Below are positions 1 through 49,763 of a stretch of DNA of 64,000 bases, one piece after another. Numbering within the stretch: position 1 is the stretch's first letter; each line of letters opens with the position of its first letter. A program made the translations under genes and the position numbers. Source of the DNA: Cunninghamella blakesleeana (Eukaryota > Mucoromycota > Mucoromycetes > Mucorales > Cunninghamellaceae); the NCBI GenBank assembly GCA_017871115.1, contig JAFCIZ010000001.1, forward strand, positions 4,817,501 through 4,881,500, written 5' to 3'. The notes under the pieces were generated by a model. The model was not told the DNA's origin. It worked only from the letters and a program-made list of their open reading frames with translations, and made no database searches.

Positions 1-1060
1 CGACTATGTTGACCTTTGGTACTTGAGAAGAGATATCTACCTCTGTGATGTCCAGATCATCTTTTTTTACTTTTTCATCGTAGGATTGTACCTCATCCTT
101 TGATGACTTTTGATTAGTAACAACTTGCTTTTTCTTACGTTGCTCCTCTTTTAAGAGCTCGTACCTGATCATATCCTTTTCTATATCGCTGTTCTTTTCC
201 TTGCAGAAACGAGCGATATGTCCTTTGACCAAACATCTTGAACACGTTATTTGTTTCATGAGTGGACAATCTTTGCGAATGTGGCCAGATTGTCTACATT
301 GGAAACAGACTGGTGGGGCACCTTTATATGACGCTGGCATATAGCTGTCCCAAAAAGAAAGATAAAGCATTCTTTGAAGTGGTTGATACTTCTTTGCTTC
401 GTCTGTATCGTTGGTGTCCAAAAGCACCGAAACTTGACCTTCAAAATATCCATCATTAGTAAGTTTTTTAATTTGGCAAACCTTACCATAAATGCTCATG
501 GATAAGAATATACCATCCATCAATTCAGCTTGCTTTTTTGGAACATAATCCAAAAGAACTCTTACCATCTTTGGTGGAGTTGCTGAATTATTTACTCTAC
601 ATGGACTTGCTTTGTAGAGTATTTCGTCAAGAGTGAAGCCTTTTTCAATAGCTTCCTCTGCATGTTTGACATCTTTAAAATTTACACCTAACAAGTTGGT
701 ACCTCTTGTATTACCATGACGGCTGTAAGGGGTGACGCCTTCAATTTCCCCAATTTGGGATTCAATCAATTTATATATCTCTTTATTTGAGAGTCCATGC
801 TTTTTGGAAAGCTCAAACAAAACCGAGTTTTCTTCCAAGGTACGTTGAGCGATCTGCTCAGCTTTATGAATTCTTAGATGATCTCTAAGAAGATGGTCTT
901 CGTAAATGACTTCATGTATAATATTTATTTGTTCCCCATAAATATCTTTTTTTAACATGGCATTAGGTATTCTTTCTTTCATACCCTTTGCCACTTTCTC
1001 GGCCCATGTTTCCCCAATTCCATTTCGAGGAAGATGGTTAGAATCTTCAGTATTAGGCAT
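1..1060 (-). CDS. LINE ORF1 protein, copy C (partial)
   Basis: The frame is open from the ATG at 1060 to the window edge, giving about 353 residues of a protein that is about 500 residues long in copies A and B. It contains the two CCHC zinc knuckles (around residues 252-265 and 272-285) that are typical of LINE ORF1 nucleic-acid chaperones, which bind element RNA. The start is chosen because the same ATG opens the intact ORF1 of copies A and B. No stop or frameshift is visible in this part. The C-terminus is off the window. Confidence 0.85.
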   Translation of the reverse strand, partial: MPNTEDSNHLPRNGIGETWAEKVAKGMKERIPNAMLKKDIYGEQINIIHEVIYEDHLLRDHLRIHKAEQIAQRTLEENSVLFELSKKHGLSNKEIYKLIESQIGEIEGVTPYSRHGNTRGTNLLGVNFKDVKHAEEAIEKGFTLDEILYKASPCRVNNSATPPKMVRVLLDYVPKKQAELMDGIFLSMSIYGKVCQIKKLTNDGYFEGQVSVLLDTNDTDEAKKYQPLQRMLYLSFWDSYMPASYKGAPPVCFQCRQSGHIRKDCPLMKQITCSRCLVKGHIARFCKEKNSDIEKDMIRYELLKEEQRKKKQVVTNQKSSKDEVQSYDEKVKKDDLDITEVDISSQVPKVNIV

Positions 1061-1250
1061 ATCTGAAAATTCTATAAAAAGCTAGCAATAATTATAACAG
1101 GTATAGAATATGCAGCTAGTGTTTTTAAAATTTTGGTTTTAGAGCTTTAAATAGAGTAAATAAATATGTATATGGTTTTCTTTGAGCGCTTAAAAGTTTA
1201 TCCGTTGTAAAAGTGTTTCTTAAGCGAAAGAGAGTTCTCGAAAGAGTTTT
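1..1250 (-). mobile_element. LINE copy C, 5' end (continues off the left edge)
   Basis: This is the 5' UTR and most of ORF1 of a LINE that runs leftwards out of the window. Its 5' end is near 1250, next to a T-rich stretch and a short hairpin repeat. The 5' UTR (1061-1240) and every ORF1 stretch I compared match copy A (7918-9157) without a difference, whereas copy B differs at many sites. C and A are therefore the youngest pair. C lies head-to-tail behind copy B, so both point away from the palindrome at 7152-7879. How C ends cannot be seen here. Confidence 0.85.
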
Positions 1251-1279
1251 TCTTTTTTTTTTTTTTTTGTATTTAAAGC

Positions 1280-1338
1280 AACACTGCATTACTGTGTAAT
1301 GCTTGTTGTATTTCTTTATTAGGCAAATTATAAGCTCC
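1280..1338 (-). repeat. Short hairpin repeat, copy 1
   Basis: This segment of about 59 bp lies between the tail of LINE B and the 5' end of LINE C. Read on the minus strand it matches 14963-15022 almost base for base and is followed by A-rich sequence in both places. It contains a perfect 7-bp stem, gcattac/gtaatgc, around an ACA loop, and an AATAAAG just upstream. It has no coding potential. It may be a small non-autonomous retroposon or a 3' tail module, but its identity is unknown. Confidence 0.6.
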
Positions 1339-1531
1339 GGTTAAAAATTAAAATAAAATAAAATAAACAAAAAAACAAAAAAAAACTAGCTATATTTTTC
1401 TTTTCTTTTCTTTTTCTTTTCCAAGTTCTTTTGACAATGCATAATTCTTTTTCTTTTTCAAAATTAAAGATCTTCAGACAGCTATTTAAAAAAGTACAAA
1501 AGATAATTAAAACATAGATTGTACATTACTG

Positions 1532-4500
1532 TCAATCTAAGTTAATATCATTATAGTTGTGGAAGACCTTCCATCTTGCTAAAGCAAAATCTGTCCTCCA
1601 AGTTGTTTCTTCAAAGACATGATGCCAGTGTTGTTGCCAAAGTATCAGTAAAACATGTCCTATTAGTACCAAAGTATTGCTGTTGACCTTATTAATACGA
1701 TTAAACGTTATTGATGACCAAATATTATTAAACTTCTCCTGTGGTATATTTTTGGAATAAGGGAAAGCTTTCCAAAATTCCTTTTTCTTTTTACAGTGAA
1801 GAATAAAATGTTGATCATCTTCAAAATCAGGACAGAAGGAACAAAGAGGAGTCTGAAACTTGGTTGGTATCATTTGATGTAGTCTACAATTTGTTGGTAA
1901 CTTGTGGATCAATATTCTCCACCATATTTCTATGGCTTTATGAGGAATATCTAGTTGCCAAAAATTGGACCAGTCAGCTTTCGACATTAACGCACCTGGA
2001 GTTTGCACCAGAGGTGGATGTTTGACAGGATAAATGGGAGAACCTTGGAAGAACCAATATCTACGCAAGGAACTCGGAGAAGCTTTATGCACCATTATTG
2101 TATTGGACGAGGAGGACAAAGAAAACTTCCATTCTTCTAGAACAGTAGAAACAGGAATATTACGACCTACTCTACTGCTTTGAAAGAAATTGTTTTTAAG
2201 AAGAGGATGAATTTTTAGTTGATCCAAAAGTAAAGAGGATATTATAGCATCATACTTTTTCCGACTATGACTATTACTAGGAGGTACTTCCATAAGATCT
2301 TTAGCAAACCAATTAGCTGGTATCAACCTTTTAATATCTAAAATAGGTTTAGATATTCTAGGTGATTCATTTATTACTAAAGCTTTTCTAAGAGGCAGAT
2401 GTTTAATTGTTTCCCTCGACCAGTTTGAAGTAGGTTTTAGTGTAGGTAAGGATACTAACATTTTTATCATATGTTTCATATGTGGCAACTTTTTGAATTT
2501 TTTATTATAATAATGTGGATCAACAAGAATCGGAATGACAGAACACTGATTAGTGTAATAGGTGATTAATTGTTGAAACACATTAAATAAAAAGTTGGTG
2601 ACGTCTGAGGTGATCATCTTATTGATATATACCATATGAAGAGCTTTGAACTGATGATTTATATCAATTAGATTAATTCCACCTTGATTCTTTGGAGCGC
2701 TGAGAAAGTAGTATGACGGTTTTGGAAAGAAAGGAACAACGTATTCATATACTTTTCTTCGAATTGATGCCAACCATTTTTCAGGGACTATTGTAACACG
2801 TAGGATATGCCATAGTCGGGAAAGGATCAACGAGTTCGTCACTATAGATCTACCTCTAATTGATAGTGATCTTTGCTTCAGCACATTAATATGATTGGTA
2901 AGTTTATTTTCAACCGACCATAAAAAGGTGTTAAGCTGCTCTTTGCTAGAGTAAACTGGATAACCTAGATAAGTGATGGCTGTTGGATTTTCCTTGTCAT
3001 GCCATGAAATTTGATCTGCCTTAGCTATCTCTTTCCAGGCATCATGTCTTTCACCTGTTACTGAAAACATGATAGTCTTTTGAAAGTTAACTTTGGCATT
3101 ACTGGCTTCACCATACAACTTTAGGATACCTTTAAGATAGTACCACTCTTTCAAATCCCTAACGAATACTAAAAGATCATCAGCATAGGCTAGTAATTTG
3201 ATGGTAACTGGATACTGTTTATTTTCAACTGTTTCCACCTTTTGATCAAGTATAGGTACACCATAAATATTACTTTCACTTAATATGGTACGTAATAAAG
3301 GTTCAAAGGCAATATTGAAAAGTAAAGGTGAAATTGGATCACCTTGACGTAATCCACGTTTCTGATCTATAGGAGCAGCCAACCAACCATTTACAGACAA
3401 ACATATCTTTGTATTAAAGAAAAGGTCAAGTAAACAGTTTATCAGAGAGGATGGGAAATGGAAACACTCTAATACTTTTTGAAGGTATAATGGATGAATC
3501 CTGTCATATGCTTTCTCTTGATCTAAGAGTAAACCTATGGAAGTATCATCAGGATTTGTATTTACAGTGTGTTGCATCAGAGTTTGTGTAATCCAGCCAT
3601 TATCAGATATCAAACGGTGTGGCATGAAACCAGTTTGATATGGGTTGATAATTTTTGGAAGACAACAGTTTAACCTATTTGCTATAATCTTTGTAAATAT
3701 TTTAGCATCACAATTAATCAGAGATAGCGGGCGCCAATTTTGTAAGAGGGTACGATCACCTTTCTTATATAATAGCACCATCTTGGTTTCTCTCCAAGAA
3801 GTAGGTTGTAATCCATTTAAAGCATCATTCATAATCAAACTAAGAAGTTCCAAAAGCTTGGGATGCATACCTAGGATGAGTTTATAAAACTCGAAACCTA
3901 AACCATCCAAACCTGGACTCTTGTGAATAGGACTGTGTTTGATTATGTTTAATACATCCTCTTGTAAGATAGCAGCGGTTAGAAGATTTTGATCTTGAAA
4001 AGATAGCTTATTATTATCAGGTATATTATTGGTTAGGACATTAATAGCAGCAACATCAACATCCTGAGTGCTATACAAATCTTTGTAATAGCTTCTGGTT
4101 TCCTTAATAATATCCTTTATATCCGTATGGATCAGATGACTTACTGGATTTTGAATAGCTGTTAGGGTCATCCGTTTAGATCTAGTTTTTAAGGTATTGA
4201 AAAAATATTTATTATTTTTTTCACCTTTATCTGACCACATAGTATTGGATCTAATTATCAACTGTTGTGTCTTGATTTTATATAAATCATCAAGTTGATG
4301 TTCTATCTTTTCAATTTCTTCCGTAGATGAAACATTTTGTCTGGCTTCTTGTAACTGTTCAAGATCAGTTTTATACTTTTTGTTCTTTACGGAACTATAA
4401 AGTGTGGTACATATCTTTACTTTTACTTTAATCTTATCCCATAATAATTGCCTATTGATGGTCTGTAGGTCAATATTATCTATCAGATTATGAAGTAACT

Positions 4501-5340
4501 CTGACAGGATAGGATAAAATTCATTGTCATGGAGTAATTGTGGATTAAATCTCCAAGTACCTGGTCCTATTTGCATCGAATCACTAGTATGTATTGACAT
4601 AGCTAGTAAGTGATGGTCAGTCCATTCAGAAGGTAAGTAAGCCAGCAGAGTATTTATCAAATCCTCTTTTAAATTACTAGAGATAAAGATATAATCAATA
4701 GTGGATCTAGTACGACCTCTTTTGAAGGTAGACAGAGGTTTGTACATACGATCAGAGCTATTGTTATTGGCACTAAATGCATCTATGTAATTAGTCAGTA
4801 GGTGCTGTATTCATGGCTGATGATCACAATAGGAATAATGACGATGGTCATATATGTGTATATTGAAATCACCAAGAATCATATGCTTGTTCGGTAAAGG
4901 AGGAGCTATAACTTGTGGGTTATCTAAGATACTGTTATAGAAAGGAATTCTTTGATCTCGATTTGCCGGAGCATAGATATTAGTTATGTAGCACAGCTGT
5001 TGATTATCTTCTGTAGAGATGATAGTACCAGCTGTGATTCTTTCGTCCAGACTAATACTTTGGTCTATAATAGTCAGTTTTGGATTAAGACAAATAATTG
5101 CTGTATATTTAGAAAATAAACAACAAGAATTTGGAAAAAGGTAATGTAGAGTTCGTACATCAGATGGAGATAAATGATTATGTTTCGAAGAAGCAGTTAG
5201 TTCTTGTAGACATAATACATCGGCTTGAGGGTGAATACGTGAACGTAAAAAACGAGAGTATTCTTTTTGAGTTTGAGAATGATTAGATTTGAATACACTA
5301 CGTGCATTCAGAGAGGAAATATTGATTTTTGATAGTGTCA

Positions 5341-5341
<1 letters not shown>
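1532..5341 (-). pseudogene. LINE ORF2 (endonuclease/reverse transcriptase), copy B, one nonsense codon
   Basis: The frame spans 1270 codons and is interrupted only by TGA at 4813-4811 (codon 177), where copy A has TGG (Trp). Without that stop it would be one uninterrupted frame. The APE endonuclease domain occupies about residues 1-230, with QEL at 46-48 and a GDFN motif near 157. The reverse transcriptase follows, with YADD near residue 719 (3187-3176). A zf-RVT-like CxxC...HxxxxC cluster lies near 1160-1195. The product would nick target DNA and copy the element RNA into it. The stop falls at the end of the endonuclease domain, so this copy is probably inactive unless the stop is read through. 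Confidence 0.88.

Positions 5342-5366
<25 letters not shown>
5342..5366 (-). repeat. Internal poly(A) tract immediately before ORF2 (copy B)
   Basis: On the minus strand there are 25 A residues directly followed by the ORF2 ATG at 5341. Copy A has 46 A residues at the same place. The tract therefore varies in length but is a constant part of the element, lying between the ORF1 stop and the ORF2 start. Confidence 0.9.
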
Positions 5367-5374
<8 letters not shown>

Positions 5375-5413
5375 TATTTATATTTATATATAAACACAAA
5401 ACAAAAATTAGAT

Positions 5414-6940
5414 TTAATTCTTGTTCACATTGGAAACTTTCTTGACTGAAAGGTCCTTTGGAACAGAATTATCTTTTTTCCTGTCTAGAATAAGACTTGC
5501 GTGAGGGTTTGACATAGATGAAGCAATAGCTAATCTATTCTTTGCTTTTGCCGTAGTCATACGAAGCATATCCACCTGATTTGATATTACCTTTTCTTGG
5601 TGTACTGACTTGACTGATGATTTCTTTTTACTATCTATGTCCATTGCCATTGTCTCTGGATCTATATCCATAGTGGTACGTTTGGTAATGGGAGCATATT
5701 TAGATGCATTAAGACCATCTTGATCCATTGTAACTTTGGTTACAGTTACATCCTTAGTATCAACCTCCATTGGTGCTGACTTGGTTTTATTACCTCCTGA
5801 TTTGTTCAAGCTGATAATTTTTGTTTCTTCTACGGTAGTTTTACCATCGACCATGTTAGTCTTATGTAAATCTCCTACCTTACCTTCAATAACCTTTGGT
5901 ACTTGAGAAGAGGTATCTACCTCTGTAGTTTCCAAATCTCCTTTTTTTACTTTTTCATCGTTGGTTTGTACCCCATCCTTTGATGACTTTTGATTACTAG
6001 CAGCCTGTTTTTTCTTACGTTGCTCTTCTTTTAAGAGCTCGTATCTGACCATATCCTTTTCTATATCGCTATTCTTCTCTTTGCAGAAGCGAGCGATATG
6101 TCCTTTGACCAAACATTTTGAGCACGTTATTTGTTTCATAAGTGGACAATCTTTGCGAATATGGCCAGATTGTCTACATTGAAAACAGACTGGTGGGGCA
6201 CCTTTATACGACGCTGGCATATAGCTGTCCCAAAAAGAAAGATAAAGCATTCTTTGAAGTGGTTGATACTTCTTTGCTTCGTCTGTATCGTTGGTGTCCA
6301 AAAGCACCGAAACTTGACCTTCAAAATAACCATCATTGGTAAGTTTTTTAATTTGGCAAACCTTACCATAAATGCTCATGGATAAGAAAATGCCATCCAA
6401 CAATTCAGCTTGTTTTTTTGGAATATAATCCAAAAGCACTCTTACCATCTTTGGTGGAGTTGCTGAATTATTTATTTTGCTTGGGCTTGCTTTATAAAGT
6501 AGTTCATCTATGATGAAACCTTTTCCAATTGCTTCCTCAGCGTGTTTATTATCCTTGAAATTTATACCTAACAGTATGGTACCTCTCGTGTTACCATGAC
6601 GACTATACGGAGTAACACCTTCTATTTCACCTATTTGGGACTCAATTAGCTTGTAGATTTCCTTATTTGAGAGCCCATGTTTCTTAGGAAGTTCGAAGAG
6701 CACAGAGTCTTCCTCCAAAGCGCGTTGTGCAATTTGTTCTGCCTTATGAATTCTTAAGTGATCTTTAAGAAGATCATCTTCATACATGACTTCATGAGCA
6801 ATATTTATTTGCTCTCCATAGATATTTTTATTTTGCATGGCATTAGGTATTCTTTTTTCCATACCTTTCGCCACTTTTTCTGCCCATGTTTCCCCGATTC
6901 CATTTCGAGGAAGATGGTTAGAATCTTCAGTATTAGACAT
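5414..6940 (-). CDS. LINE ORF1 protein with two CCHC zinc knuckles, copy B
   Basis: An intact 508-residue frame. Two zinc knuckles (C-x2-C-x4-H-x4-C type) lie at about residues 252-265 and 272-285. The N-terminal half carries a conserved globular region that resembles an RNA-recognition/transposase-22-like fold, although I cannot assign it firmly. The C-terminal third is Lys/Ser/Thr-rich and of low complexity. The protein is expected to bind LINE RNA and form the RNP. Start and stop match copy A; indels in the C-terminal part explain the lengths of 508 and 497. No disabling mutation was found. Confidence 0.9.
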   Translation of the reverse strand: MSNTEDSNHLPRNGIGETWAEKVAKGMEKRIPNAMQNKNIYGEQINIAHEVMYEDDLLKDHLRIHKAEQIAQRALEEDSVLFELPKKHGLSNKEIYKLIESQIGEIEGVTPYSRHGNTRGTILLGINFKDNKHAEEAIGKGFIIDELLYKASPSKINNSATPPKMVRVLLDYIPKKQAELLDGIFLSMSIYGKVCQIKKLTNDGYFEGQVSVLLDTNDTDEAKKYQPLQRMLYLSFWDSYMPASYKGAPPVCFQCRQSGHIRKDCPLMKQITCSKCLVKGHIARFCKEKNSDIEKDMVRYELLKEEQRKKKQAASNQKSSKDGVQTNDEKVKKGDLETTEVDTSSQVPKVIEGKVGDLHKTNMVDGKTTVEETKIISLNKSGGNKTKSAPMEVDTKDVTVTKVTMDQDGLNASKYAPITKRTTMDIDPETMAMDIDSKKKSSVKSVHQEKVISNQVDMLRMTTAKAKNRLAIASSMSNPHASLILDRKKDNSVPKDLSVKKVSNVNKN

Positions 6941-7151
6941 AGCTGAAAATTCTATAAATTGTTAACAGTAGTTGCCGCAAGTGTAGGTTGGGTTACTTTC
7001 TGTTGTTTTAGTGGTATTTTATTTTTTATTTGTTGTGAATGGCTTTGTATTCTGCGCTTAAAAGTTTATCCGGAATAAATGTGAACCTTAAGCGAAAGAG
7101 AGTTTTTTTTGGACCGAAAGAGTTTTTCTATCCGTTGTAAAAGTGATTCTT

Positions 7152-7879
7152 AAGCGAGAGTTTTTTAAAAAAAAAAAAAAAAGTAATGAAAAAAAAACCT
7201 AGATGCCTTTACGCAGTTTTTATCTATTAAATGATTTCTATAATTTTAAATACCTTTCAATATTTTTCTAAATCTAGCAAAATTATAATTATACTTTTAT
7301 ATTTAAACTATTTATATTAAATTATTATTCTAAAATTGAAATAGATTTAAAAAATTAATCTATCATTTATTTTTACATTGGATTATATACTTCTATTTAT
7401 TAAATTTCAGTTACTATTTATAGAGATATAACTTTATAATATTGTCATAAATGGAAATAAATATATTAAATCATAATATTTATAAAAAATTAGTTAGATG
7501 ATATTTACCAAAATTAGAAACAAGTATATTAATAATACTAATTTTTTATAAATATTATGATTTAATATATTTATTTCCATTTATGACAATATTATAAAGT
7601 TATATCTCTATAAATAGTAACTGAAATTTAATAAATAGAAGTATATAATCCAATGTAAAAATAAATGATAGATTAATTTTTTAAATCTATTTCAATTTTA
7701 GAATAATAATTTAATATAAATAGTTTAAATATAAAAGTATAATTATAATTTTGCTAGATTTAGAAAAATATTGAAAGGTATTTAAAATTATAGAAATCAT
7801 TTAATAGATAAAAACTGCGTAAAGGCATCTAGGTTTTTTTTTCATTACTTTTTTTTTTTTTTTAAAAAACTCTCGCTTG
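7152..7879. repeat. Perfect AT-rich palindrome (inverted repeat with 44-bp loop)
   Basis: The left arm 7152-7493 pairs with the right arm 7538-7879, and the coordinates of paired bases sum to 15031 throughout (for example 7198 with 7833 and 7493 with 7538). The only difference I found is one base in a poly(A) run (16 A against 15 T). The loop is 7494-7537. By hand count 7261-7500 holds 30 G/C in 240 bases (12.5%). No ORF or known element was recognised. Outward from each arm the sequence passes straight into the 5' ends of LINE B and LINE A, which diverge. The region could be a centromere core, a fold-back element or a replication fold-back product. Confidence 0.95.
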
Positions 7880-7956
7880 AACTCTCTTTCGCTTAAGAAA
7901 CACTTTTACAACGGATAGAACTCTCTTTCGCTTAAGAAACACTTTTACAACGGATA
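7879..7956 (+). repeat. Two perfect 39-bp monomers at the LINE A 5' end
   Basis: 7879-7917 and 7918-7956 are identical 39-bp units containing TTCGCTTAAGAAACAC and ACAACGGATA. A partial unit precedes them (7867-7878). LINE B has degenerate units at 7061-7166 and LINE C has about one unit (1187-1240). Some LINEs, such as rodent L1, carry promoter monomers as 5' tandem repeats, so these may be the element's promoter. Confidence 0.8.
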
Positions 7957-8094
7957 AACTTTTAAGCGCTCAAAGAAAACCATATACATATTTATTTACT
8001 CTATTTAAAGCTCTAAAACCAAAATTTTAAAAACACTAGCTGCATATTCTATACCTGTTATAATTATTGCTAGCTTTTTATAGAATTTTCAGAT

Positions 8095-9588
8095 ATGCCT
8101 AATACTGAAGATTCTAACCATCTTCCTCGAAATGGAATTGGGGAAACATGGGCCGAGAAAGTGGCAAAGGGTATGAAAGAAAGAATACCTAATGCCATGT
8201 TAAAAAAAGATATTTATGGGGAACAAATAAATATTATACATGAAGTCATTTACGAAGACCATCTTCTTAGAGATCATCTAAGAATTCATAAAGCTGAGCA
8301 GATCGCTCAACGTACCTTGGAAGAAAACTCGGTTTTGTTTGAGCTTTCCAAAAAGCATGGACTCTCAAATAAAGAGATATATAAATTGATTGAATCCCAA
8401 ATTGGGGAAATTGAAGGCGTCACCCCTTACAGCCGTCATGGTAATACAAGAGGTACCAACTTGTTAGGTGTAAATTTTAAAGATGTCAAACATGCAGAGG
8501 AAGCTATTGAAAAAGGCTTCACTCTTGACGAAATACTCTACAAAGCAAGTCCATGTAGAGTAAATAATTCAGCAACTCCACCAAAGATGGTAAGAGTTCT
8601 TTTGGATTATGTTCCAAAAAAGCAAGCTGAATTGATGGATGGTATATTCTTATCCATGAGCATTTATGGTAAGGTTTGCCAAATTAAAAAACTTACTAAT
8701 GATGGATATTTTGAAGGTCAAGTTTCGGTGCTTTTGGACACCAACGATACAGACGAAGCAAAGAAGTATCAACCACTTCAAAGAATGCTTTATCTTTCTT
8801 TTTGGGACAGCTATATGCCAGCGTCATATAAAGGTGCCCCACCAGTCTGTTTCCAATGTAGACAATCTGGCCACATTCGCAAAGATTGTCCACTCATGAA
8901 ACAAATAACGTGTTCAAGATGTTTGGTCAAAGGACATATCGCTCGTTTCTGCAAGGAAAAGAACAGCGATATAGAAAAGGATATGATCAGGTACGAGCTC
9001 TTAAAAGAGGAGCAACGTAAGAAAAAGCAAGTTGTTACTAATCAAAAGTCATCAAAGGATGAGGTACAATCCTACGATGAAAAAGTAAAAAAAGATGATC
9101 TGGACATCACAGAGGTAGATATCTCTTCTCAAGTACCAAAGGTCAACATAGTCGATGGTAAGACTACCGTAGAAGAAACAAAAATTACCAGCTTGAATAA
9201 GTCAGAGGGAAATAAGACCAAGTCAACTTTAATGGAGGTTGATCCTAAAGATGTAACTATAACCAAAGTTACAGTGGATCAAGATGGTCTTAATGCATCT
9301 AAATATGCCCCCATTGCCAAACGCACTACTATGGACATAGATCCAGTGACAGTGGCAATGGACATAGATAATAAAAAGAGATTATCAACCAAGTCAGTAC
9401 ACCAAGAAAAGGTAATCTCGAATCAGGTGGATATGCTTCGTATGACTACGGCAAAAGCAAAAAATAGATTAGCTATTGCTTCATCCATGTCAAACCCTCA
9501 CGCAAGTCTTATTCTAGACAGGAAAAAAGATAATTCTGTTCCAAAGGACCTTTCAGTCAAGAAAGGATCCAATGTGAACAAGAATTAA
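8095..9588 (+). CDS. LINE ORF1 protein with two CCHC zinc knuckles, copy A
   Basis: An intact 497-residue frame from ATG 8095 to TAA 9586-9588. The knuckles begin near residue 252 (codon at 8848). This is the same architecture as copy B, from which it differs by scattered substitutions and small deletions in the low-complexity C-terminal third. The overlap with copy C shows no difference in the parts I compared. The likely role is binding of element RNA in the RNP. That ORF1 is intact while ORF2 is multiply broken suggests the copy is recent and was inactivated only lately. Confidence 0.9.
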   Translation: MPNTEDSNHLPRNGIGETWAEKVAKGMKERIPNAMLKKDIYGEQINIIHEVIYEDHLLRDHLRIHKAEQIAQRTLEENSVLFELSKKHGLSNKEIYKLIESQIGEIEGVTPYSRHGNTRGTNLLGVNFKDVKHAEEAIEKGFTLDEILYKASPCRVNNSATPPKMVRVLLDYVPKKQAELMDGIFLSMSIYGKVCQIKKLTNDGYFEGQVSVLLDTNDTDEAKKYQPLQRMLYLSFWDSYMPASYKGAPPVCFQCRQSGHIRKDCPLMKQITCSRCLVKGHIARFCKEKNSDIEKDMIRYELLKEEQRKKKQVVTNQKSSKDEVQSYDEKVKKDDLDITEVDISSQVPKVNIVDGKTTVEETKITSLNKSEGNKTKSTLMEVDPKDVTITKVTVDQDGLNASKYAPIAKRTTMDIDPVTVAMDIDNKKRLSTKSVHQEKVISNQVDMLRMTTAKAKNRLAIASSMSNPHASLILDRKKDNSVPKDLSVKKGSNVNKN

Positions 9589-9635
9589 ATCTAATTTTGT
9601 TTTGTGTTTATATATATAAATATATATATATATAT

Positions 9636-9639
<4 letters not shown>

Positions 9640-9685
<46 letters not shown>
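9640..9685 (+). repeat. Internal poly(A) tract before ORF2 (copy A)
   Basis: 46 consecutive A, then T, then the ORF2 ATG at 9687. It is preceded by a TA-rich spacer after the ORF1 stop and corresponds to the 25-A tract of copy B. Confidence 0.92.
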
Positions 9686-9688
<3 letters not shown>

Positions 9689-9941
9689 GACACTATCAAA
9701 AATCAATATTTCCTCTCTGAATGCACGTAGTGTATTCAAATCTAATCATTCTCAAACTCAAAAAGAATACTCTCGTTTTTTACGTTCACGTATTCACCCT
9801 CAAGCCGATGTATTATGTCTACAAGAACTAACTGCTTCTTCGAAACATAATCATTTATCTCCATCTGATGTACGAACTCTACATTACCTTTTTCCAAATT
9901 CTTGTTGTTTATTTTCTAAATATACAGCAATTATTTGTCTT

Positions 9942-10349
9942 TGTTGAATTTATCAATTCAAAATTATACAAAAAATTAAAAACAAAGAAATATTGTGAAA
10001 CTTTTGGTTAACCTTTATTCAAATGTAAAAGACAAGGGTTGTATTTATACCTTTTAGTGGATTGGTGACACTGGGCTTAGTTTATATGATATAATATGAA
10101 AATAGAATTATAAAGTTATCTAGTAAAGGTAACGTGAATTAGAATGGAGTTTAAAGTGTGTCTATGGTAATGGATCTGCGGGATTAGAAGATTTAAAGTT
10201 ATAGCAATGCATAAGCTAATAGGAATAGATCATTTTGTATCAGGTACACAGTAGTGATTTTATAATAAATATCAAATATTTCATGTGTATTATAAGTGTA
10301 TTATAGTTATGAAGTCATTTAATATTGTTATTATATGGTAAATACAACA
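9942..10349. mobile_element. Solo LTR (408 bp) with 5-bp target duplication
   Basis: The insertion starts TGTTG and ends CAACA, and is flanked by GTCTT at 9937-9941 and GTCTT at 10350-10354. Copy B (minus strand near 5090) has the uninterrupted site with a single GTCTT. The TG...CA ends and 5-bp duplication are typical of LTR retrotransposons. No internal domain remains, so this is a solo LTR left by recombination. No second copy is seen in the window. Confidence 0.92.
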
Positions 10350-12279
10350 GTCTTAATCCAAAACTGACTATTATAGACCAAAATATTAGCCTGGATGAAA
10401 GAATCACAGCCGGTACTATCATGTCCACTGAAGACAATCAACAGTTATGCTGTATAACTAATATCTATGCTCCGGCAAATCGAGATCAAAGAATTCCTTT
10501 CTATAACAGTATCTTAGATAACCCATAAGTTATAGCCCCTCCTTTACCGAACAAGCATATGATTCTTGGTGATTTCAATATACATATATATGGCCATCGT
10601 CATTATACCTATTGTGATCATCAGCCATGGATACAGCACCTACTAACTAATTACATAGATGCATTTAGTGCCAATAACAATAGCTCTAATCGTATGTACA
10701 AACCTCTGTCAACTTTTAAAAGAGGTCGTACTAGATCCACTATTGATTATATCTTTATCTCTAGTAATTTAAAAGAGGACTTGATAAACACTCTACTGGC
10801 TTACTTACCTTCTGAATGGACTGACCATCACTTACTAACTATGTCATTACATACTAGTGATTCAATGCAAATGGGACCAGGTACTTGGAGATTTAATCCA
10901 CAATTACTCCATGACAATGAATTTTACCCTATCCTGTCAGAGGTACTTCATAATCTGATAGATAATATTGACCTACAGACCATCAATAGGCAATTATTAT
11001 GGGATAAGATTAAAGTAAAAGTAAAGATATGTACCACACTTTATAGCTCTGAAAAGAACAAAAAGTATAAAACTGATCTTGAACGATTACAAGAAGCCAG
11101 ACAAAATGTTTCATCTACGGAAGAAATTGAAAAGATAGAACATCAACTTGATGGTTTATATAAAGTCAAGACTCAACAGCTGATAATTAGATCCAATACT
11201 ATGTGGTCAGATAAAGGTGGAAAAAATAATAAATATTTTTTTAATACCTTGAAAACTAGAACCAAACGGATGACCCTAACAGCCATTCAAAATCCAGTAA
11301 GTCATCTGATCCATACTGATATAAGGGATATTATTAAGGAAACTAGAAGCTATTACAAGGAATTGTATAGCACTCAGGATGTTGATATTGCTGCTATTAA
11401 TGTCCTAACTAATAGTATACCTGATAATAATAAACTATCTTCTCAAGATCAAAATCTTCTAACTGCTGTTATCCTACAAGAGGATGTATTAAACATAATC
11501 AAACACAGTCCTATTCACAAGAGTCCAGGTTTGGATGGTCTAGGTTTTGAGTTTTATAAACTCATCCTAGGTATGCATCCCAAATTATTGGAACTTCTTA
11601 CCTTGATTATGAATGATGCTTTAAATGGATTACAACCTACTTCTTGGAGAGAAACCAAGATGGTGCTACTATATAAGAAAGGTGATCGTACCCTCTTACA
11701 AAATTGGCGTCCGCTGTCTCTAATAAACTGTGATGCTAAAATATTTACAAAGATTATAGCAAATAGATTAAACTGTTGTCTTCCAAAAATTATCAACCCA
11801 TATCAAACTGGTTTCATGCCACACCGTTTGATATCTGATAATGGCTGGATTACACAAACTCTGATGCAACACACTGTAAATACAAATCCTGAAGATACTT
11901 CCATAGGTTTACTCTTAGATCAAGAGAAAGCATACGACAGGATTCATCCATTATATCTACAAAAAGTATTAGAGTGCTTCCATTTCCCATCCTCTCTGAT
12001 AAACTGTTTACTTGACCTTTTCTTTAATACAAAGATATGTTTGTCTGTAAATGGTTGGTTGGCTGCTCCTATAGATCAGAAACGTGGATTACGTCAAGGT
12101 GATCCAATTTCACCTTTACTTTTCAATATTGCCTTTGAACCTTTATTACGTACCATATTGAATGAAAGTAATATTTATGGAGTACCTATACTTGATCAAA
12201 AGGTGGAAACAGTTGAAAACAAACAATATCCAGTTACCATCAAATTGCTAGCCTATGCTGATGATCTTTTAGTATTCGT

Positions 12280-12576
12280 TGATCTGAGAATGAAATAATT
12301 CTTATTCACTATTTTATCAATTTGTCCATAGCGATTTATTATAACTCTCATTATTTTTTTGGTTCATAACTTTAATGATGTTTTGTGTATCTTAAAAAAA
12401 TGTATAAATTCAATTTTAATTCCAATTCAATAAAGACCAGGCTTTTTCTTGTTTCAAAAACTTTTGTCATAACTTTTATTTTAATCTGATATTATCGCTA
12501 AACTACATATCCTAATTTATTTGAACTCTAATCCTCTTATCTGACTTTAATTTTATTATTTTTTTGCTATAAATCA
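12280..12576. mobile_element. LTR-like insertion, family 2, copy 1
   Basis: A 297-bp insertion that begins TGATCTGAG and ends ATAAATCA. It is flanked by TCGT(T) on both sides, with a single TCGTT at the matching site of copy B near 3165. A related 276-bp copy lies at 20716-20991. Its TG...CA ends and 4-5-bp duplication suggest a solo LTR. An AATAAAG lies near 12430. No ORF is present. The boundary base is ambiguous because the flanking T can belong to either side. Confidence 0.8.
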
Positions 12577-14369
12577 TCGTTAGGGATTTGAAAGAGTGGT
12601 ACTATCTTAAAGGTATCTTAAAGTTGTATGGTGAAGCCAGTAATGCCAAATTTAACTTTCAAAAGACTATTATGTTTTGAGTAACAGGTGAAAGTCATAA
12701 TGTCTGGAAAGAAATAGCCAAGACAGACCATATATCATGGCATGACAAGGAAAACCCAACAGCCATCACTTACCTAGGTTATCCAGTTTACTCTAGCAAA
12801 GAGCAGCTTAACACCTTTTTATGGTCGGTTAAAAATAAACTTACTAATCATATTAATGTGCTGAAGCAAAGATCATTATCAATTAGGGGTAGATCTGTAG
12901 TGACAAATTCGTTGATTCTTTCTCGACTATGGCATATCCTACGCGTTACAATAGTCCCTGAAAAATGGTTGGCATCAATTCGAAGAAAAGTATATGAATA
13001 CGTTGTGCCTTTCTTTCCAAAACCGTCATACCACTTTCTCAGCACTCCAAAGAATCAAGGTGGAATTAATCTAATTGATATAAATCATCAGTTCAAAGCT
13101 CTTCATATGGTATATATCAATAAGATGATCACCTCAAATGTCACCAACTTTTTATTTAATGTATTTCAACAATTAATCACCTATTACACTAATCAGTGTT
13201 CTGTCATTCCGATTCTTGTTGATCCACATTATTATAATAAAAAATTCAAAAAGTTGCCACATATGAAACATATGATAAAAATGTTAGTATCCTTACCTCC
13301 ACTAGAAGTAACATCAAATTGGCTTATGAGTGCAATCAAATACTTACCTCTTAGGAAAGCATTAGTATTAAATGAATTACCTAGAATATCTAAACCTATT
13401 TTAGATATTAAAAGGTTGATACCAGCTAATTGGTTTGCAAAAGATATGATGGATACATCTCCTGAAAATAGTCGTAGCCGAATAAAATATGAAGCTATAC
13501 TATTTTCTCTATTTTCTGACCAACTAGGAATTCATCCTCTTCTTAAAAACATGTTCTTTCAAAACAATAGAGCGAGTCGTGATATTCCTGTTTCTACTGT
13601 TCTGGAAGAATGGAAGTTTTCTTTGTCCTCCTCATCCTACACAATAATGGTACATAAAGCTTCTCCGAGTTCCTTGCGTAGATTTTGGTTCTCTCAAGAT
13701 TCTCCCATTTATCCTGTCAAACATCCACCTCTGGTGCAAATTCCAGGTGCATTTTTGTCGAAGGCTGACTGGTCCAATTTTTGGCAACTAGATATTCCCC
13801 ATAAAGCCATAGAAATATGGTGGAGAATATTGATCCACAAGTTACCAACAAATTGTAGACTACATCAAATGATACCAACCAAGTTTCAGACTCCTCTTTG
13901 TTCCTTCTGTCCTGATTTTGAAGATGATCAACATTTTATTCTTCACTGTAAAAAGAAAAAGGAATTTTGGAAAGCTTTCCTTTATTCCAAAAATATACCA
14001 CAGGAGAAGTTTAATAATATTTGGTCATCAATAACGTTTAATCGTATTAATAAGGTCAACAACAATACTTTGGTACTAATAGGACATGTTTTACTGATAC
14101 TTTGGCAACAACACTGGTATCATTTCTTTGAAGAAACAACTTGGAGGACAGACTTTGCTTTAGCAAGATGGAAAGTCTTCCACAACTATAATGATATTAA
14201 CTTAGTTTGGCAGTAATGTACAATCTATGTTTAATTATCTTTTGTACATGTAAATAGCTGATTGAAGAATAATTTGAAAAAGAAAAAGAATTATGTAAAA
14301 TTGTCAAAAGAACTTGGAAAAGAAAAGATAAAAGAAAAAAAAGGAAAACATAGCTAGTTTTTTTTGTTT

Positions 14370-15128
14370 TGAACTTTAATAACATATCCATGTCCACATG
14401 TTTATCGTTACCGCTACTTTTTATGTTTGATAAACTTCCTAAAGATTACTGGTTATTGAATAAAGCATATAAAATTTTACCTACCAATTTTTTCTTTAAA
14501 TACGATCAAAACACCGCGTGTCTTCGTATAAAAGTACATACTGAATATGATCGCCTCCCAAAACTATGTAAACGCTTATATTGTGATATTTTCAATAAGA
14601 AAATTCCTTTTAAACCTTTTGTAGATAGTTTAATCGCTGATGCGAATATTCCTTATGTTGCTATTGAATATACACCTCTTTATCAACAATGGCTAAAACA
14701 AAATAATTCATTAGATATAACTTCTATAGAATACAGAGCCTCCTATTACAAAACAAAAGATAATTCACCTTCGTTTAAACCGAACGTTATTAAAAAATTA
14801 TGGCACGCCCCTTTACCTCCTAACGCAACAACGATCTGGTACAAAATCATCACTAAAAAGATTCCTACTGGTTTGGCTATGAACAGAATCAACCCTCTAG
14901 CTCTTCCCCTATGTATATTATGTCATGAACCTAAAGATACAGCCCATTTTTTCTTCACCACTGGAGTTTATAATTCGCCTAATAAAGAAAATACAACAAG
15001 CATTACACAGTAATGCAGTGTTCTAAACACAAAATAAAAACATAACGCTTTCTGGAAAGCTGTAATCAATTCTGGTATTTTTGGTCCGAGAACGCAACCT
15101 TTTCAGCTGGATATATTCTGAATTGAGG
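14370..15128 (+). pseudogene. Relic of a second LINE family (ORF2 C-terminus)
   Basis: The open frame 14369-15013 encodes a zf-RVT-like end: a WYKII..KIPTG stretch followed by C-x2-C and H residues (C-I-L-C...AHFFF). This parallels WWRILIHKLPT and C-S-F-C...HFILHC of the young LINE but is clearly a different family. The homologous frame continues after the hairpin repeat (14963-15022) with NAFWKAVINSG (15044 on) to a stop near 15120. The relic therefore carries an insertion of roughly 80 bp and has no N-terminus. It begins right where LINE A ends, so LINE A probably inserted into it. Confidence 0.7.
14963..15022 (+). repeat. Short hairpin repeat, copy 2
   Basis: This partner of 1280-1338 lies inside the old LINE relic and splits its frame. 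It contains the perfect gcattac/gtaatgc stem and is followed by an A-rich stretch (15023-15045). Confidence 0.6.
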
Positions 15129-15143
15129 AATTCTCTTTTAATT

Positions 15144-15294
15144 TTTTTTTTTTTTTTTTTTTTTTCAAAAATAAAGATCTTCAATCAGCTATATTAAATG
15201 TACAAAAGATAATTAAACATAGATTGTACATTATTGTCAATCTAAGTTAATATCATTATAGTTGTGGAAGACCTTCCATCTTGCCAGAGCAAAA
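15144..15294 (-). mobile_element. 5'-truncated LINE tail with poly(A) and 15-bp target duplications
   Basis: On the minus strand this is the last 50 or so bases of ORF2 plus the 3' UTR of the young LINE family, ending in about 24 A (T run 15142-15165). AATTCTCTTTTAATT is present at both 15129-15143 and 15295-15309. A truncated 5' end, a poly(A) tail and a 15-bp duplication are the hallmarks of target-primed reverse transcription. This copy also fixes the true 3' end of the family near TTTTTG(A)n. Confidence 0.93.
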
Positions 15295-15309
15295 AATTCT
15301 CTTTTAATT

Positions 15310-20715: not shown

Positions 20716-20991
20716 TAATCTGAGAATGAAATAATTCTTAATCGCTACTTTATCAATTTGCCTGTAGTGATTTATTATAATTTTCATTATTTTTTTTGAT
20801 TAATAACTTTAATAATATTTTGTGTATCTTAATTCCAATTCAATAAAGATCAAGCTTTTTCTCGTTTTTAAAACTTTGGTCATAATTTTTATTTTAATCT
20901 TGTTTTATTTCTAAACTACATATTCCTATTTATTTGAATTTTAGCCCTCTTATCTGACTTTAATTCATTTATTTTTTTTTGCTATAAATCA
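20716..20991. mobile_element. LTR-like insertion, family 2, copy 2
   Basis: A 276-bp relative of 12280-12576: both share TGAGAATGAAATAATTCTTA near the start, TTTATTATAA, CAATTCAATAAAG, and GCTATAAATCA at the end. The flanks AAAC (20712-20715) and AAAC (20992-20995) suggest a 4-bp target duplication. It lies in the intergenic space upstream of the SRR1-like gene. Confidence 0.75.
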
Positions 20992-47130: not shown

Positions 47131-47245
47131 ATCCATAATTTTTTAATGCGGAGATTATATTCATCTTAATAAATAATCTTATCGTTTTAATACAAAAAAA
47201 AATTGGTCTATTATTATTTTTTAAAAAAAAATACGAAATAATATA

Positions 47246-49763
47246 ATGGCGCATATTGAAAAACGATCCCTTAAGCTGAAATCACCATTAGTTAATAAAC
47301 TGCGACGTTTATCGATCGATAGTTTTAAAGTAGTTAATAATGATATTTATCAAAAAAATGATCACAAAGATACAGTAAAAGAAAACAATTTATTAAGTAA
47401 TTTACGTGTAGTTCCTCAATCAAGTCAGACACAACTTCAACAACGGCGTATAAGTAACATGATACCACATACCGGATATATCAGCCCTGCAGCTGAATTA
47501 TTTAATCAAGGTGGAAGCATCAATTTTAAAAAAATAAAAATATTACCAAAAGAAATTAAAGAAACCGAATTTAGAGCTATGGCACAACAAAAAGTTATTG
47601 AGTATTTGCATATGGCTGGATACAAAGGAGGTGGATTAACAACGAGGGAATTGAAAAGCATGACTTTATCAGAATATGAAAAAAAATTCAAATTTTTACA
47701 CCTGAGATTAGATCCATATTATCCATATAAAAGGGGAAAACGTTTTGAAGATGAATTTGTCACTATCTTAAAATCACTAAGGTAATAAATCATAATAATA
47801 AGAATATAATGAAGCAAGCGATTATTTACTAACTAGTTTCTCAATTTATATTTATTATCCTGTTTAATTTCTATAGGTTTCCTTGTGCAGAAGCATTTAC
47901 TAGTAAACAGTTGTATCAAATAGCAGCACCTCATTCATATCCTAATTTTTTATATGTTTTATCATGGCTAACTGATCAATGTATTGTAAGTCCGATATAT
48001 ATATACTTTAATCAGTATCAATGTCATTCCTTCATATAACTTAACATATTTGTGTACATATATTTACTAATGCTACATTAAAAATTATTTTACATAATGG
48101 TATAGGAATTTGATAAAATGGCGGAAGAAGCAGCATCCCAGTTAAATAGCACGCTCAATATAAACCAAGAAATTGGACCAGAGGAAATGGATATGCTCTT
48201 TTTTGATTATACAACTTCGACTTATAATCTATTTATGAAAGGTCATGATGATTTCAAATCAACTGAAGATGAACTATATATCATATTTGAAAGTATCAAC
48301 GAAGGTGGTATGGAACAAATTAGACAGCTGACACTTCAAAAGGATAACCTCAGTAAAGAAATAAAAGAATTAGAAAAACCATTGGTAAAATATAAAATTT
48401 GTTATTATTTATGAACAAAAATGAATGAATAATGGAATATAGCAAGTCAACTAATCATGTTTTTTTTATGGCTACGAGTAGATTTATTTAGAATCATTAA
48501 GAAATAAAAAAAAGGATACTCAGAGTGAAATATCAAGGCTAGAAGATTACATTGAAAAGCAAAAACATAGAGTATTCAAATACAAGGAATATTTAAGTCG
48601 CCTTTCTGAAGAAATAAACCGAATCAGTAATATATATCTACATAGACTACGTATTCATATGACTAACATATTATACTATTATATATTCTTTAACATTATT
48701 ATATAGAAACTGATATAGTTACTCTTGAAGGGAATAAATCAAATTTAAAACTGTCGTTAGTTGGCAAAGATATAACCGATGAAGAAATCAATAGAATGGC
48801 AGAATTACTTGCTCAAAAGGAAAAAGAAAGTGAAGAGCTAAGAGTTGAATTAGAAGAACTACAACAAAAATCATGGGAAAAAGAGATACAAATGGAAAGG
48901 GCACGGACGGATGTAATTGAATTATTGTATATATTAATAATAAGTGATTGAGATAAAAAAAAAAAGTTAAGTTTATTTGTTTATTATTTTAGATTGAACG
49001 CACAGTATTGCAATATAATGAATTGACGCATATAATGAAAAATATACCTCTAGATGAACTTGTTGAAGCAATTGTAAAATCAGATTTAGTTTTTGATCCA
49101 AATTCGGATGAAATGATGTCACAGGACTTGGTCAATGATGTTTTGGTACAAAATAGTATATATAACAAATCCAATAATAATGGTAATAATGATAATTTTA
49201 CTAATTGAATTTTATTTTAAATACAATACTAGCCTGTTTTAAAGAGAATAGAAAGTGATTTAGGAGATAGCATTAGAAATGATCAATTATTGGAACTCGA
49301 ATTAGTGGAACAACTAGGCGACCTTCAAGAAAAATTAAAAGACCACACGAATGAATTTCAACGAATGCTAGACAAATATACAAAGAAATTGACAGAGTAT
49401 GAAATCGATAAAGAAGAAGTTATGAAAGAAAGCGTCAGATATAATGAAAAAATAGACCGAGATCAAAGGGAATTAAGAAATATACATGATAGTGCTATAA
49501 AGCAATTGATTGAAAATCAGCAATATCAGTATAGTTTAGAACAAGAGTAAGAAACAAATTATCATTATGCATACATGCATTTATTTAGCAGCACTACTAA
49601 TAATTTTTATTATATTTTATTTGTTATTTTTAGATTTAACAAATTACAGAGAATAGCCAAGGAACATAAACAGAGACTTTACCAACAAATCAATTTACTG
49701 ATATCGGATACAACTAAAAATATGGATAGCATTAATGAAAAATTAAATAAACTAAATATATAA
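47246..49763 (+). CDS. NDC80: Kinetochore protein NDC80 (HEC1)
   Basis: Eight exons: 47246-47781, 47877-47985, 48106-48384, 48482-48626, 48707-48912, 48993-49145, 49233-49546 and 49634-49763, giving 623 residues (the family is about 600-690). A basic N-terminal tail leads into a calponin-homology domain, with DPYYPYKRGKRFEDEFVTILKSLRFPC and APHSYPNFLYVLSWLTDQC. The rest is long coiled coil. It binds microtubules at the outer kinetochore with Nuf2, Spc24 and Spc25. The sixth exon must end at GTACAA (49146) to keep frame; reading on would put an Asn-rich intron stretch into the protein. Confidence 0.93.

What the first reader, a model, noticed from the sequence alone, without database searches (positions are those of the whole stretch)
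1..15309. Candidate mosaic centromere: AT-rich palindromic core with LINEs pointing outwards
Seen: a gene-free block of at least 15 kb; a 728-bp core (7152-7879) of very low G+C (30 of 240 bases in 7261-7500); LINE A leaves it rightwards, LINE B and then LINE C leave it leftwards. Known, as I recall it: in Mucor (Mucoromycota without CENP-A) kinetochore-binding cores of roughly 0.75-1.2 kb, AT-rich and carrying a shared motif of about 41 bp, sit inside pericentric regions full of L1-like Grem-LINE1 elements. Inference: this locus has the same plan, here with a perfect palindrome as the core, which I do not recall being described. The 39-bp monomers next to the core are of similar size to that motif; I cannot compare sequences here.
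Basis: partly seen in the sequence, partly recalled or inferred. Interest (0 to 1): 0.9.

Follow-up and report, generated by a model that had tools for sequence, protein, structure and literature searches.

The report
Palindromic centromere core, one per chromosome
In a fungus related to Mucor, each of seven chromosome-scale places has a short, AT-rich DNA palindrome ringed by jumping genes that face away from it; this is probably the centromere, and a mirror-image DNA core would be a new way to build one.

Summary
The core (window 7152-7879) is two arms of 342-343 bp, 99.4% matched, around a 43-bp asymmetric spacer. The assembly (31.9 Mb, 12 contigs) has seven independent loci of this plan, on C1, C5, C6, C7, C8, C10 (overlapping the end of C2) and C11; an eighth, at the start of C3, is a low-quality duplicate of C1. 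The three telomere-to-telomere contigs (C5, C6, C7) have one motif pair each. Within a locus the arms match at 95-100% over the inner 250 bp; between loci, globally aligned, they are mostly near shuffled level. Yet a roughly 90-bp block persists: one pattern drawn from it hits 15 places genome-wide, all in palindromes, as one inverted pair per independent locus, 268-290 bp apart. Matches of the centromeric LINE family point outward in 40 of 41 (ORF1) and 21 of 22 (ORF2). No CENP-A was found. Best reading: sequence-defined, CENP-A-less Mucorales centromeres whose core is a palindrome with a mirrored pair of binding motifs. Kinetochore binding is not shown, and the published Mucor 41-bp motif could not be compared.

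The parts
7152..7493 (+). Left arm of the core palindrome
   Evidence: Self-alignment to the reverse complement, 99.4% with 2 mismatch/gap columns
7494..7536 (.). Asymmetric spacer at the dyad (43 bp); shares a weak motif with the other cores
   Evidence: EM over 6 spacers: 0 of 60 shuffles reach it at widths 16, 20, 24 and 1 of 60 at width 12, but the sites chosen differ between widths
7537..7879 (-). Right arm of the core palindrome
7371..7463 (+). Conserved arm block, left copy, pointing to the dyad; the pattern hit is 7371-7400
   Evidence: Alignment A2; pattern search
7568..7660 (-). Conserved arm block, right copy, mirror of the left; the pattern hit is 7631-7660
   Evidence: Mirror about 7515.5; pattern search
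7879..7978 (+). 39-bp tandem monomers outside the right arm; LINE 5'-end element
   Evidence: Tandem Repeats Finder; element search; context
7952..7969 (+). GGATAAACTTTTAAGCGC, right, pointing outward
7054..7071 (-). GGATAAACTTTTAAGCGC, left, pointing outward
8074..14370 (+). LINE A: ORF1 (8074-9588, zinc knuckle), ORF2 pieces 10529-12298 (RT) and 12681-14216 (zf-RVT); the match to LINE B ends at 14370
14354..15309 (+).
1372..6961 (-). LINE B: ORF1 5414-6961 (zinc knuckle), endonuclease part 4811-5377, ORF2 1532-4810 (RT, zf-RVT)
1..1253 (-). LINE C, 5' part (continues left of the window); 1-1238 is identical to 7917-9154 reversed
1199..1275 (-). Junction where the poly(A) end of LINE B meets the 5' element of LINE C

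Best explanation
The locus is the centromere of this chromosome in a CENP-A-less Mucorales-like fungus. Its core is an AT-rich palindrome (about 580-760 bp over the seven loci) that carries one conserved motif block twice, in mirror orientation, about 280 bp apart, around a short asymmetric spacer. Shown: one such locus per chromosome-scale unit, the motif pair, the arm homogenisation and the outward LINE arrays. Inferred: a sequence-specific protein binds the two mirrored motifs and seeds the kinetochore in place of CENP-A chromatin; the palindrome is kept by gene conversion between arms (or repair through a hairpin) and by selection for the symmetric pair or for a cruciform; an L1-like LINE inserts at the T(n)A(n) border of the core in outward orientation, which builds the pericentric arrays.
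For: A palindrome at the LINE polarity switch in 7 of 7 independent LINE clusters, with one motif pair on each of the three telomere-to-telomere contigs C5, C6, C7. 13 telomeric ends seen; 14 would make 7 chromosomes (arithmetic). The arm pattern has 15 hits genome-wide, all in palindromes: 2 in each of 7 loci plus 1 in the C3 duplicate; reversed control 0. Pair spacing 268-290 bp while spacers run 26-85 bp. Within-locus arms 95-100% against 56-83% between loci, shuffled mean 58%; in 6 of the 21 pairs of loci examined, 89-100% of left-arm differences are mirrored in the right arm. LINE-family matches outward in 40 of 41 (ORF1) and 21 of 22 (ORF2); a second LINE family near the cores only 2 of 11. 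All 11 listed histone matches were read: four H3 genes (three identical, one intron-split and near-identical), H2A, H2B, an H2A.Z-like and an H2B-like gene, no CENP-A (names other than H3 by recall, H2B-like). LINE ORF1 kin in Cunninghamella echinulata, Halteromyces, Absidia. Mucor cores are about 1 kb, motif-bearing, in transposon-rich surrounds, without CENP-A (PMC9089191, passages).
Against: No kinetochore, chromatin or Hi-C data. The Mucor 41-bp motif sequence could not be obtained. Ribosomal-protein genes lie next to the core on C6 and C11, unlike the gene-free surround described for Mucor. Pfam searches for Mis12 and the CENP-C cupin found nothing; exon-by-exon search is weak for such genes, and H4 was not among the histone matches either, so the missing CENP-A is not proof of absence. 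Contigs C3, C4, C9 and C12 have no independent core of their own, and LINE remnants of the family occur outside the clusters (C7:1018k, C1:7157k). The pattern was drawn from these cores, so only its lack of other hits is a test.
Confidence: 0.85

Rival explanations
1. The palindrome is not a kinetochore site but a LINE platform: a symmetric promoter or insertion hotspot from which the LINEs are copied outward.
For: The LINE 5' element lies just outside the arms, and inner LINEs sit at the core border.
Against: LINE copies away from the core lack the arm pattern, which occurs nowhere else; on C6 and C11 a ribosomal-protein gene, behind a remnant of the element, comes first on the right side, with LINE pieces only further out; LINE clusters alone do not explain one locus per chromosome.
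Confidence: 0.08
2. The palindrome is another once-per-chromosome element, for example a replication origin or termination site.
For: AT-rich, hairpin-prone DNA with paired motifs would suit it.
Against: A chromosome of megabases needs many origins (established knowledge); the LINE-rich surround fits published Mucor centromeres.
Confidence: 0.04
3. Assembly fold-back artefact.
For: The C3 copy is indeed an error-rich duplicate of C1.
Against: Seven loci with different arm sequences (C5 and C7 the most alike), asymmetric spacers and different sequence on the two flanks; arms end at the core border.
Confidence: 0.03

Closest known systems
Mosaic centromere of Mucor lusitanicus/circinelloides and seven further Mucoromycota species (Navarro-Mendoza 2019, not held; PMC9089191 and PMC12925627, passages seen)
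   Same: AT-rich core of similar size, conserved motif in all cores, L1-like Grem-LINE1 surround, no CENP-A
   Different: Described there as a 41-bp motif followed by a downstream AT-rich stretch; here the core is a near-perfect palindrome with the motif block twice in mirror orientation, and genes can lie next to the core. 'palindrom' and 'inverted repeat' and 'Cunninghamella' have 0 occurrences in the main text of PMC12925627
Inverted-repeat centromeres of Candida tropicalis (starts of abstracts), fission yeast and Komagataella (recalled)
   Same: Inverted symmetry kept by homogenisation
   Different: There, repeats flank a central core of kilobases (recalled) with CENP-A; here the arms meet at a 26-85-bp spacer and no CENP-A was found
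Budding-yeast point centromeres (CDEI-II-III)
   Same: Short, AT-rich, sequence motif per chromosome
   Different: No CDEI or CDEIII match in the cores (motifs recalled); two mirrored motifs; no CENP-A found

Membership tests
Mucorales mosaic centromere | One locus per chromosome | tested here: met
   7 independent loci; one motif pair each on the telomere-to-telomere contigs C5, C6, C7; C2/C10 counted once, C3 excluded; the other contigs are not telomere-to-telomere, so there it is inferred
Mucorales mosaic centromere | AT-rich core of about 1 kb | tested here: met
   Core stretches 582-830 bp, G+C 13-18%
Mucorales mosaic centromere | One conserved motif in every core | tested here: met
   Conserved block in all 7 loci
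Mucorales mosaic centromere | That motif is the published Mucor 41-bp motif | not testable with these tools
   Navarro-Mendoza 2019 is not held
Mucorales mosaic centromere | Surrounded by L1-like Grem-LINE1 elements | tested here: met
   zf-CCHC ORF1, endonuclease, RVT_1 and zf-RVT; ORF1 kin in Mucorales; domain set as in PMC7377519 (passages). Grem-LINE1 sequences themselves were not compared
Mucorales mosaic centromere | Gene-free pericentric region | tested here: not met
   Holds for the window; ribosomal-protein genes start about 80-150 bp from the core on C6 and C11. A trait of the Mucor cases, not known to be essential
Mucorales mosaic centromere | CENP-A absent | tested here: met
   None among the 11 listed histone matches, all read; H4 was not listed either, so the search is not exhaustive
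Mucorales mosaic centromere | Kinetochore proteins bind the core | not testable with these tools
   Needs ChIP-seq
Inverted-repeat regional centromere | CENP-A chromatin on a unique mid-core between the repeats | tested here: not met
   No CENP-A found; spacer 26-85 bp
Saccharomyces point centromere | CDEI and CDEIII elements | tested here: not met
   0 exact matches in 8 of 8 cores, C3 duplicate included (consensus recalled)

The most novel reading that the evidence does not exclude
A genetically defined centromere whose information is the palindrome itself: two mirrored motifs at a fixed distance, or the cruciform they can form, replace CENP-A as the mark, and the symmetry is renewed by gene conversion between the arms while the arm sequence drifts from chromosome to chromosome.
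Probability: 0.35. Interest if true: 0.95.

Novelty: new variant of a known kind. Interest (0 to 1): 0.85.

Why it matters
How a lineage that lost CENP-A still marks its centromeres is an open question. Seven related palindromes that have diverged far between chromosomes, yet keep mirror symmetry, a motif pair and its spacing, name the DNA that a CENP-A-independent kinetochore would read and give a natural experiment on what matters in it. They also suggest a simple model for why the centromeric LINEs face outward.

Tried and rejected
39-bp monomer as the counterpart of the Mucor motif: rejected, it marks LINE 5' ends. Spacer flipping between loci as evidence of recombination: rejected for C1/C3, since C3:1-14473 is an inverted duplicate of the whole C1 locus (98.1%, 219 gap openings); not pursued for C5/C7. 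C3 as an eighth locus: rejected for the same reason. Weak matches at C7:966031 and C2:2320253: no long palindrome there. First mirrored-substitution count gave only 17 of 90 and 14 of 105 for the C1 pairs; the C1 arms differ by one base at the spacer edge, which shifts the index, and a recount allowing 2 positions gave 110 of 110 and 109 of 111. Mis12 and CENP-C family searches: nothing found, not informative. Species: LINE kin point to Cunninghamellaceae, but the EMC1 exon's best named kin are Apophysomyces (44%) and Rhizopus (43%), so only Mucorales is claimed. Nine paper searches (listings and abstract starts) showed no palindromic Mucorales centromere; several were broad, the library lacks most subscription journals, and no supplements were read.

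Limits of the statistics: the real arms got up to 2000 EM starts and the 20 shuffles 500 each; the real arms beat all shuffles at all four widths (barely at 12), but only width 41, chosen with the published length in mind, gave one position in all six loci. Between-locus identities are global; local BLAST finds more, e.g. C7-C10 71% over 201 bp and C6-C11 67% over 369 bp. Orientation: first gave 39 of 40 and 20 of 21; a recount of the rows within 60 kb of a core added one ORF1 and one ORF2 row. Rows are matches, some of them pieces of one copy. The families were split by identity (ORF1 33%, ORF2 44%); all rows together give 41 of 45 and 22 of 29 outward. C3, and C2 (which repeats C10 rows), were left out; two searches listed 72 and 53 rows in all.
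Full report
What is there. The window is C1:4817501-4881500 of a 31.9-Mb assembly in 12 contigs. At 7152-7879 two arms of 342 and 343 bp, 99.4% matched, surround a 43-bp asymmetric spacer. The core holds 110 G+C in 728 bp and is the lowest 600-bp stretch of the window. As single-stranded DNA it folds at -342.5 kcal/mol, against a mean of -65.4 for 20 shuffles. LINE A points right, LINE B and LINE C point left; ORF1 has a zinc knuckle, ORF2 an endonuclease, a reverse transcriptase and a zf-RVT domain.

One per chromosome. ORF1 and ORF2 searches of the genome place this LINE family mainly in single clusters, on C1, C2, C3, C5, C6, C7, C8, C10 and C11, with small remnants elsewhere (C7:1018k, C1:7157k); a different LINE family (35-38% ORF2 identity) is dispersed along the arms (the tool calls its counts lower bounds). 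In C1, C5, C6, C7, C8, C10 and C11 a palindrome sits where LINE polarity switches: arms of 265-357 bp, spacers of 26-85 bp, arm identity 100% in C6, C8 and C10, 98-99% in C1, C5 and C7, 84% in C11. The end of C2 overlaps the start of C10 (same matches at a nearly constant offset), so these count as one; no long palindrome was seen in the last 10 kb of C2. C3:1-14473 is a 98.1% copy of C1:4822716-4837379 with 219 gap openings, a low-quality contig start that I exclude. C5, C6 and C7 have telomeres at both ends and one motif pair each; 13 telomeric ends were seen in all, and 14 would make seven chromosomes (the last step is arithmetic, not assembly).

Symmetry kept while sequence drifts. Over the inner 250 bp the two arms of a locus match at 95-100%. 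Between loci the 21 global comparisons give 56-83%; outside the C1/C5/C7 trio they are 56-63%, where shuffled arms give 58% on average and at most 61.5% (30 draws). Local alignments do find shared inner parts, e.g. 67-71% over 200-370 bp. In six of the 21 pairs of loci, the ones examined, the arm differences are mirrored in the other arm: 110 of 110, 109 of 111, 41 of 44, 112 of 112, 113 of 113 and 103 of 116 left-arm differences. So arms are homogenised within a locus much faster than between loci. I infer gene conversion or hairpin-mediated repair.

A mirrored motif pair. EM over the arms of six loci (C7 left out as a near copy of C5, C3 excluded) found at width 41 a motif scoring 231, against at most 190 in 20 shuffles, at 85-112 bp from the spacer in all six (fewer starts were used for the shuffles). 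It lies in a block of about 90 bp with 24 invariant columns among 8 aligned rows, the C3 duplicate included. The pattern TTTTRCATN{8,9}TAMWTCYWTWTWT, drawn from that block, hits 15 places in the genome: two in each of the seven loci, both pointing to the dyad, and one in the C3 duplicate; none elsewhere, and none for the reversed control. The pair spans 268-290 bp (mean 280, s.d. 8) although spacers vary from 26 to 85 bp; permuting the arm distances among loci gives as small a spread in 0.57% of 20000 trials. Descent from one ancestral palindrome would also keep this spacing, so it is suggestive of constraint, not proof. The spacers share a weaker asymmetric motif (0 of 60 shuffles reach it at widths 16, 20 and 24; 1 of 60 at width 12; the sites chosen differ between widths).

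LINEs face outward. Of the family's matches within 60 kb of a core (C2 and C3 left out), 40 of 41 for ORF1 and 21 of 22 for ORF2 point away from the core; the exceptions are C6:3442371 and C7:1223326, the latter probably a piece of the second family. The second family's matches near cores point outward in only 2 of 11. The 18-bp element GGATAAANTTTTAAGCGC, with up to one mismatch, occurs 34 times in the genome: 33 in these clusters and one at C8:1152602; reversed control 0. Read from that listing, 32 of the 33 point outward, or 28 of 29 without the C2 and C3 copies. It begins the LINE 5' end and lies just outside the arms; the poly(A) end of LINE B meets the 5' element of LINE C. I infer insertion by an L1-type endonuclease at the T(n)A(n) border of the core.

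The organism and CENP-A. The LINE ORF1's best named relatives are Cunninghamella echinulata (77% over 59% of the query), Halteromyces, Chlamydoabsidia and Absidia; the EMC1 exon's best named relatives are Apophysomyces and Rhizopus. The histone search listed 11 matches (14 candidates), all of which I read: three identical H3 genes and a fourth, intron-split H3 with near-identical exons (two of the 11 matches), two H2A, two H2B, an H2A.Z-like and a diverged H2B-like gene, but no CENP-A. H4 was not listed, so the search is not exhaustive. Ndc80 is present, in the window itself. Mis12 and the CENP-C cupin were not found, which is weak evidence because searches go exon by exon.

Compared with what is known. 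[quoted passage not shown] The surrounding L1-like Grem-LINE1 elements have the same kinds of domain as here (PMC7377519, passages). A 2025 study predicted cores in eight Mucoromycota species as motif plus downstream AT-rich region (PMC12925627, passages); its main text has no occurrence of 'palindrom', 'inverted repeat' or 'Cunninghamella'. The original Mucor paper is not held. What differs here is the near-perfect palindrome, the doubled and mirrored motif block, and host genes that lie next to the core on C6 and C11.

Verdict. Centromere: likely (0.85), pending kinetochore ChIP. That the symmetry itself is functional: plausible (0.35 for the strong form).

Noticed in passing
C6:3470576-3470755 (L022 6077-6256) and C11:723287-723658 (L025 3288-3659): Complete ribosomal-protein ORFs (Ribosomal_L29e; Ribosomal_L29, i.e. 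L35 type) start about 80-150 bp outside the palindrome, behind a remnant of the LINE 5' element.
   Followed up: partly
window 47225-47785: The Ndc80 kinetochore gene lies about 40 kb from the candidate centromere on the same contig.
   Followed up: no
L048 11-343 (C1:5697110-5697442): A diverged H2B-like histone (best solved match an H2B chain, 8grq_D, E 6.6e-30) in a genome where no CENP-A was found.
   Followed up: partly
window 9942-10349: A 408-bp insertion in LINE A; similar copies (92-99%) lie in or near the clusters on C2, C5, C7, C8, C10 and C11 (through the C3 duplicate), so it is a repeat of its own.
   Followed up: no
window 12281-12576: A second insertion of about 300 bp in LINE A, 80% like 20718-20991.
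   Followed up: no
C7:1222k-1223k, C10:38-63k, C6:3460441 and the arms: A second LINE family, 35-38% alike in ORF2, is dispersed along the arms and also sits near some centromeres, mostly pointing inward there.
   Followed up: partly
C3:1-14473: Error-rich inverted duplicate of the C1 centromere at a contig start; an assembly problem of the record.
   Followed up: yes
C11 end (L043): The contig seems to end in 28S rRNA sequence (recognised by recall).
   Followed up: no
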